Shown here piece after piece: positions 3,361-50,430 of a DNA stretch of 64,000 nucleotides. Source of the stretch: [Clostridium] aerotolerans DSM 5434 (GTDB lineage Bacteria; Bacillota; Clostridia; Lachnospirales; Lachnospiraceae); assembly GCF_000687555.1 (NCBI RefSeq), contig NZ_JHWJ01000003.1, positions 124,001 to 188,000 on the forward strand, given 5' to 3'. Made by a program: the position numbers and the translations under genes. The notes under the pieces are model-generated. The model saw only the letters and a program-made list of their open reading frames with translations. It did not search any database and was not told the origin of the DNA. Each line of letters starts with the position of its first letter. Position 1 is the stretch's first letter.

Positions 3361-3444
3361 TGCAGAAGAAGGGACTTGAACCCTCAAGGTATTGCTACCA
3401 CACGGACCTGAACCGTGCGCGTCTGCCAATTCCGCCACTTCTGC
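3361..3444 (-). tRNA. tRNA-Leu (anticodon CAG), copy 1
   Basis: 84 nt with a complete cloverleaf: 7-bp acceptor stem GCAGAAG/CTTCTGC, anticodon loop TTCAGGT giving anticodon CAG (reads CUG), a long class II variable arm and a TTCAAGT T-loop. The CCA end is not encoded. It is identical in sequence to the copy at 3719-3802. Confidence 0.95.
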
Positions 3445-3552
3445 TCATCAATTGTATAAATTGGATAACCAATTCGTACAATTATATTACTATACTTCCA
3501 GCAATTAATCAAGCACTTTTTTATATTTTTAAATGCTCTCTTATGCGGATAA

Positions 3553-3583
3553 AAAAAGAACCCTTTGTTAAGGATTCTTTTTA
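3553..3583 (-). terminator. Terminator behind tRNA-Leu(AAG)
   Basis: Stem AAAAAGAA-CC against GG-TTCTTTTT with a run of T on the minus strand, placed directly after the minus-strand tRNA-Leu(AAG). Confidence 0.7.
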
Positions 3584-3587
3584 TTAA

Positions 3588-3671
3588 TGCGGGAGATGGG
3601 ACTTGAACCCACACGATCATACAACCACAAGATCCTTAGTCTTGCCTGTCTGCCAATTCCAGCACTCCCGC
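3588..3671 (-). tRNA. tRNA-Leu (anticodon AAG), minus-strand copy
   Basis: 84 nt class II tRNA with acceptor stem GCGGGAG/CTCCCGC, anticodon stem CAAGA/TCTTG and loop CTAAGGA, so the anticodon is AAG. An A at position 34 implies deamination to inosine by a TadA-type enzyme to read CUU, CUC and CUA. It is an exact copy of the plus-strand gene at 3961-4044, so the two form a large inverted repeat. See findings. Confidence 0.93.
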
Positions 3672-3718
3672 ACGTCATTTTATAAAACCAAACAGCCATG
3701 ACATTCTGTAAGGTTTCA

Positions 3719-3802
3719 TGCAGAAGAAGGGACTTGAACCCTCAAGGTATTGCTACCACACGGACCTGAACCGTGCGCGTCTGCCAATTCCGCCACTTCT
3801 GC
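3719..3802 (-). tRNA. tRNA-Leu (anticodon CAG), copy 2
   Basis: Identical over 84 nt to the gene at 3361-3444; the seven bases following the 3' end in transcription order are shared too, so the duplication is recent or maintained by gene conversion. It is the promoter-proximal gene of the minus-strand tRNA-Leu transcript. Confidence 0.95.
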
Positions 3803-3835
3803 ATTTCGTTGTTATCTCTCGCAACAACAATAGCT

Positions 3836-3864
3836 ATTATAGTATACAAGCACTATTATGTCAA
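3836..3864 (-). promoter_or_regulatory. Promoter of the minus-strand tRNA-Leu cluster
   Basis: Consensus sigma-A promoter on the minus strand: TTGACA (3859-3864), 17-bp spacer, TATAAT (3836-3841). Confidence 0.85.
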
Positions 3865-3919
3865 TATCTTTTTTCCAATTTTTTTCAAATTGTTTTTTGT
3901 ATATATTTTTCAAAAAACA

Positions 3920-3948
3920 TTGACAATAATCAAAAAGGATGATAAGAT
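3920..3948 (+). promoter_or_regulatory. Promoter of plus-strand tRNA-Leu(AAG)
   Basis: TTGACA (3920-3925), 17-bp spacer, TAAGAT (3943-3948), a few bases before the tRNA start. Confidence 0.7.
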
Positions 3949-3960
3949 TACTTTCGTTGC

Positions 3961-4044
3961 GCGGGAGTGCTGGAATTGGCAGACAGGCAAGACTAAGGAT
4001 CTTGTGGTTGTATGATCGTGTGGGTTCAAGTCCCATCTCCCGCA
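3961..4044 (+). tRNA. tRNA-Leu (anticodon AAG), plus-strand copy
   Basis: Identical in all 84 nt to the minus-strand gene at 3588-3671; anticodon loop CTAAGGA. It has its own promoter immediately upstream and is followed by a T-rich stretch and then the tRNA-Asn promoter. Confidence 0.93.
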
Positions 4045-4058
4045 TTTTTATTTTTTTA

Positions 4059-4086
4059 TTGACATATCTCTATTTTGAGGTATAAT
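4059..4086 (+). promoter_or_regulatory. Promoter of tRNA-Asn
   Basis: TTGACA (4059-4064), 16-bp spacer, TATAAT (4081-4086), ten bases before the tRNA. Confidence 0.85.
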
Positions 4087-4096
4087 AATAAAGTAT

Positions 4097-4169
4097 TCCT
4101 CGATAGCTCAGTCGGTAGAGCAAACGGCTGTTAACCGTTGGGTCGTAGGTTCAAGTCCTACTCGGGGAG
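4097..4169 (+). tRNA. tRNA-Asn (anticodon GTT)
   Basis: 73 nt cloverleaf: acceptor TCCTCGA paired with TCGGGGA (one G-U), D-arm AGCTCAGTCGGTAGAGC, anticodon loop CTGTTAA with anticodon GTT, T-loop TTCAAGT, discriminator G. CCA is not encoded. Confidence 0.96.
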
Positions 4170-13683: not shown

Positions 13684-13947
13684 ATAAAAAAGTCCCTTTC
13701 CATACGTTTCCATACAGAAAGGGACGATTTAATCAAAATAAATCGCGGTTCCACCCTAAATTGAGCGGACAAAAATGTCCAAACCACTTCATTTGATGAT
13801 AACGGAATCACCGTTCCCGATTAAGGGACGCTCCAAGATGGTTTTCTCATAGCATTCCGGTAAAGCACTTTCACCTTATGTGCTTCTCTCTGGACGTTCC
13901 TGCAATGATACTGTTCTTATCCACGCGTTTTCTATATAGCTTTCTAT
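13684..13947 (-). ncRNA. T-box riboswitch (threonine) of thrS
   Basis: The minus strand carries the T-box core AGGGTGGAACCGCG (13743-13756), which pairs with the uncharged tRNA end, followed by a terminator (13684-13725) with stem GTCCCTTTC/GAAAGGGAC and T-run. The 5' part folds into the long stem I; an ACC Thr codon in CTTTACCGGAATG is the likely specifier. The RNA switches on thrS when tRNA-Thr is uncharged. Confidence 0.93.
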
Positions 13948-34607: not shown

Positions 34608-35507
34608 TTAGAATGAAGGAACAACTGCTCCATCATACTTATCATTGATGAATTTCTTCACATCTTCACTTGTAAGTGCTTCTACAAGCGCTTTTGTCTT
34701 TTCGTTGCTCTCATCACCGGAACGAACTGCTACGATATTGCTGTAACGGGTTGCTGCCACTGATTTTGCATCTTCTACTGCTAAGGCATCGGATACCTTT
34801 AAACCAGCTTCAATCGCATAGTTTCCGTTAATAACTGCAACATCAACATCTCCAAGAGAACGTGGAAGCTGAGCTGCTTCTACTTCAATGATCTTAAAGT
34901 TCTTTTCATTTTTAACAATATCATTCTTAGTTGCTTCCAGTTCTACGCCTTCCTTAAGCTCAATGAGGCCATTGTCTGCCAGAAGAAGAAGTGCTCTTGC
35001 TTCATTAGAAACATCGTTAGGAACCGCAATCTGTGCTCCTTCTTTCAGCTCATCCAGGGATTTTGTTTTTCCTGCATAAATTCCGAAAGGCTCATAATGA
35101 ATGGATGCTGCGCTGACAAGAGTGGTTTTATTCTCTTCGTTGAACTGATCTAAATAAGGCTGATGCTGAAAATAGTTGGCATCCAGATCACCAGAGTCCA
35201 GTGCCAGGTTTGGCTGTACGTAATCGGTATACTCTTTTACTACCAGCTCATAACCTTTTTCTTTTAAAATATCTTTTGCTGCGTTTAAAATCTCTGCGTG
35301 TGGAGCTGGAGTTGCACCAACAACAATTTTTTCTAAATCGCCAGCTGCCTTTGTTTCATCGCCTGCTTTTGTTGTCTCTGCGGAAGCTGCTTCTGTCTTA
35401 GACTCTGCTGCTGTTGTTGTAGCAGTAGTTCCCTTGCCTGAGGAGCATGCAGTTAATGCACCTGCTAAAAGTACGGATGCGGTAAGAACATAAAGTGATT
35501 TTTTCAT
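34608..35507 (-). CDS. metQ: Methionine ABC transporter substrate-binding lipoprotein
   Basis: 299 residues. Signal peptide with lipobox (LLAGALTACSSG, Cys about 21), then a Thr/Ala/Glu-rich linker and the NlpA/MetQ domain (KIVVGATPAPHAEIL, DANYFQHQPYLDQF, VDVAVINGNYAI). It captures methionine outside the membrane for MetNI. Last gene of metN-metI-metQ. Confidence 0.95.
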   Translation of the reverse strand: MKKSLYVLTASVLLAGALTACSSGKGTTATTTAAESKTEAASAETTKAGDETKAAGDLEKIVVGATPAPHAEILNAAKDILKEKGYELVVKEYTDYVQPNLALDSGDLDANYFQHQPYLDQFNEENKTTLVSAASIHYEPFGIYAGKTKSLDELKEGAQIAVPNDVSNEARALLLLADNGLIELKEGVELEATKNDIVKNEKNFKIIEVEAAQLPRSLGDVDVAVINGNYAIEAGLKVSDALAVEDAKSVAATRYSNIVAVRSGDESNEKTKALVEALTSEDVKKFINDKYDGAVVPSF

Positions 35508-35554: not shown

Positions 35555-36220
35555 TTACTTAATTCTTTTGTCACTGACTCTGGAAAGCTTCATACCAGCT
35601 TCCTGAATAATCTGTACGATGATAACAAGGATTGCAACGGTTGCAAACATCATTGCTGTCTGATAACGGTAATAGCCGTATTTGATTGCAATATCTCCTA
35701 AACCACCACCGCCTACAAAGCCTGACATGGCGGAATAACCGAGAATCGTTGTTATGGATAAAGCCGCTCCCACTAACAGAGAAGGTTTGGCTTCCGGTAA
35801 AAGCACCTTCCATATAATCTGTAATGGTGAGGCACCCATGGATTTTGCAGCTTCAATGACACCTGCATCTACTTCCTTAAAGGAAGATTCCACGACTCTT
35901 GCAACGTATGGAGCTGAGGCGATGACAAGGGGCGGAATGACCGCACTTGCACCCAGAGTGGTTCCTACTACCATCTTTGTAATAGGAAGAACCATGATCA
36001 GTAAAATAATAAATGGTACGGAACGAAGAAGGTTTATAATAAGACCCAGGATTCTCTGAAACCAGGGAATTGGAAAAATTCCGTCTTTATCCGTTACAAT
36101 AAGTATGATTCCCAAAGGAATTCCGATTAAATATGCAAAAAAGGATGAGGTAAAGGTCATGTATAGTGTTTCCCAAATTCCTAATTTAAGCATGCTTACG
36201 GTAGCCGCATCAAATATCAT
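35555..36220 (-). CDS. metI: Methionine ABC transporter permease
   Basis: 221 residues, about five membrane helices, with the EAA loop EAAKSMGASPLQIIWKVLLPEA that contacts MetN. Its ATG overlaps the stop of metN by four bases (ATGA), so the subunits are translationally coupled. Confidence 0.96.
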   Translation of the reverse strand: MIFDAATVSMLKLGIWETLYMTFTSSFFAYLIGIPLGIILIVTDKDGIFPIPWFQRILGLIINLLRSVPFIILLIMVLPITKMVVGTTLGASAVIPPLVIASAPYVARVVESSFKEVDAGVIEAAKSMGASPLQIIWKVLLPEAKPSLLVGAALSITTILGYSAMSGFVGGGGLGDIAIKYGYYRYQTAMMFATVAILVIIVQIIQEAGMKLSRVSDKRIK

Positions 36221-37259: not shown

Positions 37260-37293
37260 AAAAAGGCCGCAAGTCCTGCACAGACTTGCGACC
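37260..37293 (-). terminator. Attenuator in the metNIQ leader
   Basis: Minus-strand stem GGTCGCAAGTC (37283-37293) with GACTTGCGGCC (37265-37275, one G-U), loop of seven, then five T. It stands between the leader peptide and metN. Confidence 0.9.
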
Positions 37294-37355
37294 TGATAAT
37301 CTCCGCGTTAGCTGCTTCTTGCGAATTCAATCACAATCCATACAAATGAAAATCA

Positions 37356-37451
37356 TTATCGGTTTTTTACGCACTCTGACATACAACACATCATCATACA
37401 CATGTCGTTCTTCCGATCCATATTCATCTGCATAGCTTCTGAATGATTCAT
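37356..37451 (-). CDS. Methionine/cysteine-rich leader peptide of metNIQ
   Basis: A 31-codon ORF with 9 Met and 4 Cys (reading ..MQMNMDRK.. and then MCMMMCCM), starting seven to eight bases after AAGGAG and ending TAA. It lies between a consensus promoter and the terminator before metN, so it is transcribed with the operon. The codons most demanding for Met-tRNA (residues 17-24) precede the terminator. I infer a ribosome-stalling attenuator sensing methionine (possibly also cysteine) supply. It could instead be a small metal-binding peptide. I do not know a described example in this group. Confidence 0.7.
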   Translation of the reverse strand: MNHSEAMQMNMDRKNDMCMMMCCMSECVKNR

Positions 37452-37507
37452 GGCAGCTACTCCTTCCCTGATTCCTATAGTAAAAGTAGGAATTACTTCT
37501 GAGGCGT

Positions 37508-37536
37508 ATTTTACGCTTTCTTTTGGTATTTGTCAA
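37508..37536 (-). promoter_or_regulatory. metNIQ promoter
   Basis: Minus-strand TTGACA (37531-37536), 17-bp spacer, TAAAAT (37508-37513). A small hairpin ATTCCTA/TAGGAAT (37471-37493) forms at the mRNA 5' end. Confidence 0.85.
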
Positions 37537-37571: not shown

Positions 37572-38975
37572 TTAGGAGCAAAGATCTACAATTACCTGTG
37601 CGAATATTTTGGCGCTTACTACAAGCTCCTCCACAACGGCAAATTCATCTGCTCCGTGCATACGGTTGTCTGTTTCCGGCATGGAAGCACCGAATGCCAC
37701 TCCATTTTTCAGATCATGGACATAAGTACCGCCGCCCATGGAGATGCATTCCCCTTTTCTGCCGGTGTAAGTTTCGTAAATCTGTAACAGTGTTTTTACA
37801 AACTCTGAGTTTCCGTCCACATGGTGAGGAGGTCTCATGGAGTCATTATGAAGAGTAAAGCCCTTATCTTCCATATTCTTCTTTACTACCTGAAGAACAT
37901 TTTCTTCGTTGGAACAGATGGGGCAACGGCTGTCAAAGGTTCCTTCCAGTCCGGTGTCTGTTACTTTTAATAAGCTGAATGCCAGAGTTAAATCACCAGA
38001 GATTTCATCTCCCATAGCGATTCCAAGTGATTTTCCACTGGTATCTCCATGAGGAATCAAATCATGAAGCCTGCGAAGCATGGTAACCTGCGGGCATTCT
38101 GCAAGGGGAAGCTTTAACAGGTAATAGAGAAGTCCGGTCAAAGCGTTGTTACCCTCTTCTGGAGTAGATGCATGAGCGCCTTCCCCGATAGCGGTTATGA
38201 TACCCTGGTCTCCTATCATCTCTATCTCATAACGAATTCCTGTCGTTACCTGAGTTTCATCCGCAACTTTCTTTAACAGTGCTTCTTCCACTCCAGCAAC
38301 AGTAGCAGATACCTTACCGGGAACCACATTGACTTTAAGTCCTGCTTCCAGCTTTACGATCTTAGGAAGTTGACCTGATGCCTCCCATTCTGCCGTAAAG
38401 TGACCAGCCAGACCGCCTTTTTCTGTATTCACCACTGGGAAAGCCCCATCTGGTGAAAATGTCATAGGCGCTTCTTTTTCCACAGAATAATAGTGGGCAA
38501 TATCGGAGCTTCCGCATTCTTCGTCTGTACCAAGAATCAAACGTACATTTTTACTGAGAGGAATGTTTAAATCCTTTACCGCTCTAAGGGCATAAAGTGC
38601 AGCTACTGCAGGTCCCTTATCATCAGAGGAACCACGGCCAAAAAGCTTTCCATTCTTGACGATGGGATTAAATGGCTCTGTTTCCTTCCAGCCTTCTCCG
38701 GCCGGAACTACATCAAGATGAGCCAGGATATCAAGCTGAGTCTCTTTGTCGTTTATATCCACAGTCCCAACATAATTGTCGTAGTTATTAATGGAAAAGC
38801 CGTAAGATTCTGCTATGGTCAAAGCTTCTGTCAGGGCTTCAAATGCTCCCGGGCCAAAGGGCATTCCTTCTTTATAAGGCATCTTTTCGCTGTTGATCCG
38901 GCACAGGGTGCAGATATCGTCAAGCATTTCCTGCTTATGGGCCTCTATATATTCTTCGATTTCCTTCTTATACAT
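37572..38975 (-). CDS. pepV: Sapep/PepV-family M20 dipeptidase
   Basis: 467 residues, metal-dependent dipeptidase of the M20 family. Metal and catalytic motifs: LAHLDVVPAG (His ligand, catalytic Asp), GRGSSDDKGP (bridging Asp), GTDEECGSSD (catalytic Glu) and SPDGAFPV. It likely hydrolyses dipeptides taken up by the cell. It follows yqeY by 16 bases in a prfC-yqeY-pepV run. Confidence 0.93.
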   Translation of the reverse strand: MYKKEIEEYIEAHKQEMLDDICTLCRINSEKMPYKEGMPFGPGAFEALTEALTIAESYGFSINNYDNYVGTVDINDKETQLDILAHLDVVPAGEGWKETEPFNPIVKNGKLFGRGSSDDKGPAVAALYALRAVKDLNIPLSKNVRLILGTDEECGSSDIAHYYSVEKEAPMTFSPDGAFPVVNTEKGGLAGHFTAEWEASGQLPKIVKLEAGLKVNVVPGKVSATVAGVEEALLKKVADETQVTTGIRYEIEMIGDQGIITAIGEGAHASTPEEGNNALTGLLYYLLKLPLAECPQVTMLRRLHDLIPHGDTSGKSLGIAMGDEISGDLTLAFSLLKVTDTGLEGTFDSRCPICSNEENVLQVVKKNMEDKGFTLHNDSMRPPHHVDGNSEFVKTLLQIYETYTGRKGECISMGGGTYVHDLKNGVAFGASMPETDNRMHGADEFAVVEELVVSAKIFAQVIVDLCS

Positions 38976-50170: not shown

Positions 50171-50430
50171 AGAAAAGCCCCTTGCATCCTGGGATGCAAA
50201 GGGCGAATCGTCGCGGTACCACCTTATATTATGGCACTTGGCCATATCTCTTAAGGCCTTTAACGCTGCCAGGCGTGAAGACTTACTTCTTAAATTTCAG
50301 CCTTCCGGTTCCAAAGCTACCTTCCGAACATACTTCCTTAACCGCCTTTCAGCCGATGGACGGTTTTCTCTTTCAGGGTTATGAACGTACTCCTCTTTTT
50401 CTTAACCTTTTTCTTATTGTTATCTTATAC
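50171..50430 (-). ncRNA. T-box riboswitch (valine) of valS
   Basis: Minus-strand T-box core AAGGTGGTACCGCG (50212-50225) followed by the terminator GCCCTTTGCATCC/GGATGCAAGGGGC and T-run (50171-50204). The 5' part has the expected long stem I; I did not assign the specifier with confidence. Confidence 0.92.

What the first reader, a model, noticed from the sequence alone, without database searches (positions are those of the whole stretch)
37260..37536. Met/Cys-rich leader peptide and terminator before metNIQ: ribosome-mediated attenuation in a Firmicute
Seen: a consensus promoter, a 31-codon ORF with a strong AAGGAG site, 9 Met and 4 Cys codons (a dense run at residues 17-24), then an intrinsic terminator before metN. 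The last codons (ACCGATAAT, minus strand, 37355-37363) can pair with ATTATCAGGT (37291-37300) next to the terminator, which would act as an antiterminator if the ribosome stalls upstream on Met codons and be masked if it reaches the stop. A CGCAAG copy before the terminator could also pair with its 3' arm. Established: in Firmicutes met genes are usually under SAM riboswitches or T-boxes; none is visible here. Inference: classical peptide attenuation sensing charged tRNA-Met (or Cys).
Basis: partly seen in the sequence, partly recalled or inferred. Interest (0 to 1): 0.82.

Follow-up and report, generated by a model that had tools for sequence, protein, structure and literature searches.

The report
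Methionine-sensing leader peptide before metNIQ
A short reading frame rich in methionine and cysteine, followed by a switchable RNA hairpin, sits before a methionine-uptake operon in a clostridial bacterium and most likely lets the ribosome itself measure the methionine supply: a known kind of genetic switch, here used for methionine.

Summary
In detail: promoter, Shine-Dalgarno site, a 31-codon ORF with 9 Met and 4 Cys, and an intrinsic terminator precede metN. It is not chance: the leader is kept in 24 of 25 genus genomes, and 71 of the 80 nearest metN loci fetched have a Met-rich leader ORF (controls). In a wider family sample 21 of 90 metN places have a Met/Cys leader, 10 of them unrelated in sequence. 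No SAM riboswitch or T-box lies here; the only SAM riboswitch found in the genome precedes metK. In one clade of relatives metN carries instead a T-box with an AUG specifier, so charged tRNA-Met is the likely signal. Cys may be a second input; unproven. No expression data exist here, and folding tests are only partly supportive. The mechanism kind is known; a metNIQ leader was predicted in Streptomyces. I found no Firmicute methionine attenuator in the papers searched.

The parts
37531..37536 (-). -35 hexamer TTGACA
   Evidence: ATTGACAAA is invariant in the 24 aligned genus leaders
37508..37513 (-). -10 hexamer TAAAAT
   Evidence: nearly invariant
37474..37490 (-). inverted repeat CCTA-N9-TAGG between promoter and leader SD, role unknown
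   Evidence: 34 of 80 leaders, 0.46 expected in mononucleotide shuffles; missing in the other 46
37460..37465 (-). Shine-Dalgarno site AAGGAG of the leader ORF
37356..37451 (-). leader ORF, 31 codons plus stop, 9 Met and 4 Cys
37423..37433 (-). region 1: ATGCAGATGAA, codons 7-10 (Met7, Met9)
   Evidence: pairs with region 2 in 96.6% of cells, slid at most 53.8%
37380..37403 (-). Met/Cys tract, codons 17-24 (MCMMMCCM)
   Evidence: Met17 in 50, Met21 in 51, Cys22 in 52 of 52 leaders of alignment A1
37329..37350 (-). region 2, starting 5 nt after the stop codon; complementary to region 1 and to region 3
37275..37293 (-). region 3: 5' arm and loop of the terminator, partner of region 2 in the antiterminator
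   Evidence: 90.5% of cells paired
37264..37294 (-). intrinsic terminator hairpin (region 3:4), U run 37264-37260
   Evidence: 5 of 13 pairs with changes on both sides, 0 of 500 shuffles as high on the covariation score
36217..37233 (-). metN-like ATPase gene
   Evidence: ABC_MetN 340.4 bits, below the equivalog cut-off of 499.7
35555..36220 (-). metI permease gene
   Evidence: 222.8 bits, above the cut-off of 212
34608..35507 (-). metQ-like lipoprotein gene
   Evidence: best MetQ model 192.9 bits, below its cut-off of 374

Best explanation
This is a ribosome-mediated transcription attenuator that sets metNIQ expression by the supply of charged tRNA-Met, possibly with charged tRNA-Cys as a second input. 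When Met is plentiful the ribosome translates the leader and leaves; region 1 (codons 7-10, with Met7 and Met9) then pairs with region 2, region 3 stays free, and the terminator (3:4) stops transcription before metN. When Met-tRNA is short, the ribosome stalls on the early Met codons and covers region 1; region 2 then pairs with region 3 (the 5' arm and loop of the terminator), the terminator cannot form, and metNIQ is transcribed. Shown: the parts, their conservation, the mutually exclusive complementarities, the association with metN, and an AUG-specifier T-box before metN in a clade of relatives. Inferred: the order of events, the stalling and the amino acid response.
For: Leader conserved in 24 of 25 genus genomes, with in-frame indels of 9, 3 and 6 nt. 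Met-rich ORF in 71 of the 80 nearest metN loci, controls. The 11 leader-peptide HMM hits with E<1e-5 in 200 genera of the family all sit before a metN; the 3 weak hits (E 0.02-0.03) do not. Region 1:2 96.6% paired, 2:3 90.5%, terminator 93.5% with covariation, on 44 distinct leaders chosen as told in Tried and rejected. Native partners pair better than permuted ones: 2:3 -16.98 against -15.59 (sd 0.39; 2 of 5000 permutations as low), 1:2 -30.62 against -24.78 (sd 0.55; 0 of 5000). 5 of the 9 leaderless loci carry a T-box before metN with specifier AUG, calibrated on the window's own T-boxes before ThrRS- and ValRS-like genes (ACC, GUA); the T-box loci form a group beside leader loci in the MetN tree. 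The only SAM riboswitch found in the genome precedes metK.
Against: No expression data. In alignment A2 neither 2:3 nor 1:2 has a pair changed on both sides, and neither exceeds shuffles (2:3 covariation 141 of 500 shuffles as high, cells paired 83 of 500; 1:2 481 and 500 of 500): conserved, not covarying. Single-locus 2:3 tests reach p<0.05 in only 9 of 48. Equilibrium folding with a ribosome footprint at early Met codons raises region-3 pairing by more than 0.05 in 17 of 48 leaders, lowers it so in 6 and changes it less in 25; for the window itself 1:2 collapses (0.73 to 0.01-0.03) but region-3 pairing only moves from 0.46 to 0.47-0.59, and in L011 a ribosome at the stop also gives 0.91. The most conserved columns are Met17, Met21 and Cys22, not the Met codons of region 1 (42 and 44 of 52). 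MetN and MetQ score below the NCBIfam equivalog cut-offs, so the substrate is inferred. In the wider family sample most metN places (69 of 90) have no Met/Cys leader by my scan.
Confidence: 0.85

Rival explanations
1. Ligand-dependent nascent-peptide arrest: the Met/Cys peptide itself, in the exit tunnel, halts the ribosome in response to a small molecule (Met, SAM or a Cys compound), as TnaC or SpeFL do (recalled), and the RNA switch follows.
For: Position-specific conservation, Gly16 42 of 52, Met17 50, Met21 51, Cys22 52, is more than a codon counter needs; the Cys22-to-region-2 distance is tight (median 48 nt, MAD 3) while stop-to-region-2 is loose (MAD 11.5) (40 of 48 leaders).
Against: Unrelated metN leaders (L162, L176, L178, L199, L208, L210 and the second metN of this genome) share little but Met/Cys richness; in a clade of relatives the gene has a T-box, which reads uncharged tRNA-Met.
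Confidence: 0.1
2. The ORF encodes a functional Met/Cys-rich metal- or thiol-binding micropeptide, and the terminator is incidental.
For: Met and Cys clusters resemble metal ligands (recalled); the frame is conserved, pN/pS 0.53 over codons 2-31, though 0.69 over codons 12-24 and 0.97 over codons 2-6.
Against: 11 of 11 hits with E<1e-5 in 200 genera lie before metN; in the 15 distinct genus ORFs codons 7-11 do not vary even at synonymous sites, where region 1 pairs; length and C-terminus vary; terminator and complementary regions are conserved.
Confidence: 0.03
3. An undescribed riboswitch or protein-bound leader in which the ORF plays no part.
For: The leader RNA is unusually stable (z -3.76) and conserved over its whole length in the genus; an inverted repeat lies upstream in part of the family; a weak Rfam match to the Rhizobiales sRNA Atu_C9 (E 0.038, 16 bits against a gathering score of 40) covers 37264-37360, which I take as chance.
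Against: In-frame ATG 419 against 17 and 27, in-frame indels, and Cys22 kept as TGC or TGT (43 and 9 of 52) point to translation; no match over a gathering score in the leader.
Confidence: 0.02

Closest known systems
trp/his/leu-type ribosome-mediated transcription attenuators of Proteobacteria (recalled)
   Same: Leader ORF with control codons in region 1, mutually exclusive 1:2, 2:3 and 3:4 pairings, intrinsic terminator before the cognate genes
   Different: Met (and Cys) control codons, a Firmicute host, a transporter operon, and a stop codon whose place relative to region 2 varies among relatives
metL leader predicted before metNIQ in Streptomyces lividans (PMC8079986; passages read)
   Same: Leader peptide with Met and Cys (CMCRRMC) before metNIQ
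   Different: Leaderless transcript, one species, no typical terminator found there; here ORF, terminator and antiterminator in a clade, with unrelated peptide sequence
Leader peptides replacing T-boxes in Firmicutes, hisZ/hisS (PMC2965389; passages read)
   Same: Predicted ribosome-mediated leader in Firmicutes standing where relatives have T-boxes
   Different: Histidine, not methionine
Leucine-rich attenuator peptide of branched-chain amino acid genes in Staphylococcus aureus (PMC5794164; title in listing)
   Same: Peptide attenuator of amino acid genes in a Firmicute
   Different: Branched-chain amino acid synthesis rather than methionine uptake
Met T-box before metN orthologues (L045, L073, L080, L082, L088)
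   Same: Same gene, same deduced signal (tRNA-Met charging)
   Different: Direct tRNA binding, no translation needed (recalled)

Membership tests
Ribosome-mediated transcription attenuator | Translatable leader ORF with SD and conserved frame | tested here: met
   translation itself not measured
Ribosome-mediated transcription attenuator | Control codons for the amino acid handled by the downstream genes | tested here: met
   Mean 29% Met over 80 leaders; MetI passes its model cut-off, MetN and MetQ do not
Ribosome-mediated transcription attenuator | Intrinsic terminator between leader ORF and first gene | tested here: met
Ribosome-mediated transcription attenuator | Antiterminator exclusive with the terminator | tested here: met
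   Conserved complementarity 90.5% against 25.8-49.3% slid and 2 of 5000 permutations; no covariation within A2, and 9 of 48 single-locus tests at p<0.05
Ribosome-mediated transcription attenuator | Region carrying control codons pairs with the antiterminator strand | tested here: met
   96.6% of cells; 0 of 5000 permutations; no covariation within A2
Ribosome-mediated transcription attenuator | Read-through rises when the cognate tRNA is uncharged | not testable with these tools
   needs Term-seq or reporters; the T-box in relatives is indirect support
Ribosome-mediated transcription attenuator | Stop codon placed over region 2 (as in trp; recalled; common but not held to be defining) | tested here: inconclusive
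   stop-to-region-2 anchor distance -35 to +43, MAD 11.5, in 40 of 48 leaders
SAM riboswitch (RF00162) | Aptamer match in the leader | tested here: not met
   the one copy found in the genome is at G000:C4:256978-257104 before metK
T-box (RF00230) | Stem I, specifier and T-box sequence in the leader | tested here: not met
   the window's two T-boxes precede ThrRS- and ValRS-like genes
Ligand-sensing arrest peptide | Conserved residues needed for stalling beyond codon identity | tested here: inconclusive
   Met17, Met21, Cys22 and Gly16 conserved; unrelated leaders lack the motif

The most novel reading that the evidence does not exclude
A dual sulfur-amino-acid attenuator: one leader whose Met and Cys codons, upstream of region 2 at a near-fixed ruler distance, integrate charging of both tRNA-Met and tRNA-Cys. 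The same design of Met runs next to Cys pairs (MMMCC, LMCC, MMCCCC) arose repeatedly in unrelated metN leaders, including a second metN operon in this genome, and is interchangeable with a Met T-box.
Probability: 0.35. Interest if true: 0.75.

Novelty: new member of a known kind. Interest (0 to 1): 0.6.

Why it matters
Methionine genes in Firmicutes are usually described as under SAM riboswitches and T-boxes (recalled). A methionine leader-peptide attenuator spread over a clade, with metK left to the SAM riboswitch and metNIQ to tRNA charging, would split sensing of the metabolite and of the charged tRNA between two genes of one genome. A leader peptide and a T-box on orthologues of one gene make the evolutionary exchange of tRNA sensors directly testable, and the company of Cys codons asks whether one leader can read two amino acids.

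Tried and rejected
SAM riboswitch, T-box or another Rfam family over its gathering score in this leader: none. A second copy of this leader in the own genome: besides the leader itself the HMM gave E 0.08 within a uvrB-like ORF (name is my reading) and E 2.2 just behind an ABC gene; the second metN has an unrelated leader instead. A chance origin: excluded by controls. Leaders outside the family: 291 Clostridia genomes gave own genome, one genus relative and one weak hit, G313 (E 0.00228), not followed up; this HMM search has limited reach, since it missed G165, whose metN has the leader (L188). Rfam was run on 52 of the 90 family metN places: T-boxes in L160 and L175, a Clostridiales-1 sRNA in L161, nothing else, so the control of many family metN genes is unexplained. 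The equilibrium ribosome-masking model was only weakly supportive; a cruder version masks everything upstream and so favours antitermination at late codons and at the stop. In-frame TGY (154) is not above frame +1 (200; mostly ATG followed by T or C), so that count is no evidence for Cys enrichment. Of 10 unrelated leaders, no 2:3 pairing at p<0.05 was found for the second metN (L002), L155, L171 (p 0.057), L194 (first try), L199 and L210.

Selections and rows dropped: one search kept the best 80 of 569 confirmed metN relatives, so 71 of 80 speaks for near relatives. One search used 75 leaders (80 with an ORF, less five mis-called terminators: L037, L050, L054, L061, L087), thinned to 48 at 85% likeness. 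Alignment A2 took 21 of 24 genus leaders (L092 failed my pattern; L091 and L100 left out as near copies) and 24 other loci picked for a recognisable region 2, so its percentages describe a chosen set. One search used 21 of 24 genus ORFs (31 codons only), 15 distinct. One search dropped 8 of 48 with duplexes weaker than -14. mis-called the L194 terminator (p 0.863); one search repeated it with the hairpin next to the ORF (11 of 1000 mononucleotide shuffles as low). One search crashed and was rerun. Some of the 90 family places have short or imperfect upstream stretches (for example L144, L159, L164).

Full report
What is there. On the minus strand between a PepV-like dipeptidase gene (37572-38975) and metN (ATG 37233) lie a consensus promoter (37536-37508), an SD site (37465-37460), a 31-codon ORF (37451-37356; 9 Met, 4 Cys) and an intrinsic terminator (37294-37264). 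The following genes match MetI above its NCBIfam cut-off and MetN and MetQ below their cut-offs, so 'metNIQ' is a family-level name and the exact substrate is inferred.

Not chance. The leader DNA is found in 24 of 25 genomes of the genus; the one miss is a 67% complete genome. In the alignment of those 24 the reading frame is kept, with indels of 9 and 3 nt inside the ORF. One search returned the best 80 of 569 confirmed metN relatives, mostly Lachnospiraceae or clostridia by their titles; 71 of these 80 have a Met-rich leader ORF with at least 5 Met. Composition over 80 leaders (these 71 and 9 more genus loci) is 29% Met and 9.7% Cys on average. With a fixed, stricter rule and 450 nt the count is 68 of 80, against 0 on the reverse strand, a mean of 0.15 in shuffles and 2 of 1646 control windows. 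Over 48 thinned leaders ATG is in frame 419 times and out of frame 17 and 27 times. In 15 distinct genus ORFs pN/pS is 0.53 over codons 2-31 (0.69 over codons 12-24), and codons 7-11 do not vary at all.

Anatomy. Folding the leader gives a long hairpin that joins the early Met codons to the stretch after the stop, plus the terminator (z -3.76). The same stretch after the stop is also complementary to the 5' arm and loop of the terminator. I name them region 1 (37433-37423), region 2 (37350-37329), region 3 (37293-37275) and the terminator (37294-37264). On 44 distinct leaders of alignment A2 (a chosen set, see Tried and rejected), 1:2 pairs in 96.6% of cells (slid at most 53.8%), 2:3 in 90.5% (slid 25.8-49.3%) and the terminator in 93.5% with five doubly changed pairs. 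For 2:3, 12 of 18 pairs vary on one side only and none on both; for 1:2, 6 of 11 and none. Neither exceeds column shuffles, so A2 gives conservation and tolerated change, not covariation. Over 48 more diverse leaders native 2:3 and 1:2 partners pair better than permuted ones (2 and 0 of 5000), and divergent leaders L052, L053, L077, L079 and L085 keep strong 2:3 pairing (p 0.005-0.01), though only 9 of 48 pass p<0.05 singly.

How it most likely works. Stalling on Met codons in region 1 frees region 2 to hold region 3 and stop the terminator; a ribosome that finishes and leaves lets 1:2 form and the terminator stop transcription. A rough footprint model agrees in part: in the window's leader a ribosome at Met7, 9 or 11 removes 1:2 (0.73 to 0.01-0.03) but barely moves region-3 pairing (0.46 to 0.47-0.59); in L011 it raises region-3 pairing from 0.01 to 0.55-0.91, but so does a ribosome at the stop (0.91). 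Stalls at codons 17-24 do neither in these two. Over 48 leaders the mean gain for early Met stalls is 0.12 (up in 17, down in 6). Equilibrium folding is not cotranscriptional folding. The ruler from codon to region 2 is tight (Cys22 to region 2 median 48 nt, MAD 3), whereas the stop lies from well before to well behind region 2's anchor (MAD 11.5; 40 of 48 leaders). I therefore think release or passage of the ribosome, not parking at the stop, gives the OFF state; this is inference.

What is sensed. Of the 9 named loci without the leader ORF, 5 carry a T-box directly before metN. These five, and the T-boxes of L160 and L175, read GAAN-AUG at the specifier (read by eye), the place being calibrated on the window's T-boxes before ThrRS- and ValRS-like genes, GAAA-ACC and GAAG-GUA (the enzyme names are my reading). 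In the MetN tree the five T-box loci and one locus with only 230 nt upstream (L074) form a supported group (99/93) whose sister is a group of eight leader loci, the two joined with 100/96. The tree is rooted only by a very long outgroup branch, so replacement of the leader by the T-box is likely rather than proven. Two further loci without the ORF, L058 and L064, keep a promoter and a terminator-like hairpin by eye. The only SAM riboswitch found in this genome precedes metK (metK named from its sequence). tRNA-Met charging is thus the best-supported signal.

Cysteine. Cys22 is present in 52 of 52 leaders of alignment A1 with either codon (TGC 43, TGT 9), and Met17 and Met21 in 50 and 51. In one genome per genus for 200 genera, 88 have a MetN-like gene at E<=1e-85. 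Of the 90 metN places besides the window's own, 21 have a Met/Cys-clustered leader ORF within 500 nt (shuffles mean 0.75, maximum 3; reverse strand 0); by my reading 11 belong to the main family and 10 are unrelated in sequence (for example MMMCC in L176 and L178, MMCCCC in L162). L171 has another, farther upstream. The second metN operon of this genome has such a leader, with Met/Cys leaders at its orthologues too, 7 loci in all of 25 genomes searched. Of 10 unrelated leaders tested, 4 have a 2:3-like pairing at p<0.05, and L194 on re-test. Either Cys charging is a second input, or the peptide acts in the tunnel; the data do not decide.

Known or new. Ribosome-mediated attenuation is a known kind, and Firmicute examples exist (PMC2965389, passages; PMC5794164, title in listing). 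A metL leader before metNIQ was predicted in Streptomyces lividans without a typical terminator (PMC8079986, passages). In the passages I saw, PMC8632094 and PMC1262725 describe Cys leaders and no Met leader; PMC1262725 states that no conserved RNA structure was observed before methionine operons in Actinobacteria. My searches, limited to open-licence PMC papers, listed no methionine attenuator in Firmicutes; absence from print elsewhere is not shown.

Noticed in passing
window 37474-37490 (-): Inverted repeat CCTA-N9-TAGG between promoter and leader SD, in 34 of 80 leaders against 0.46 expected in shuffles; operator or 5' stem-loop, unexplained.
   Followed up: partly
L002:292-411 (G000:C4): Second metN-metI operon of the same genome with its own, unrelated Met/Cys-rich leader peptide and a terminator-like hairpin.
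   Followed up: partly
L058 and L064, upstream of metN: A promoter and a terminator-like hairpin are kept but the Met-rich ORF is gone (by eye): natural loss variants that could serve as controls.
   Followed up: no
window 37410-37412 (-), codon 14 of the leader: Lys (AAG) in this genome where all but two of the other 23 aligned genus leaders have Met.
   Followed up: no
window 13717-13932 and 50196-50412 (-): T-boxes with Thr (ACC) and Val (GUA) specifiers before ThrRS- and ValRS-like genes.
   Followed up: yes
window 3361-4169: Cluster of five tRNA matches, four with the same score on both strands.
   Followed up: no
L011, L012, L017, L083: MAG contigs labelled Paenibacillaceae or Anaerolineaceae carry the leader and fall among Lachnospiraceae and clostridial rows in the MetN tree; probably mislabelled bins.
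   Followed up: partly
metN upstream regions among L151-L228: Many family metN genes show neither a Met/Cys leader nor, where Rfam was run (52 of 90 places), an Rfam element in my scans; their control is unknown.
   Followed up: no
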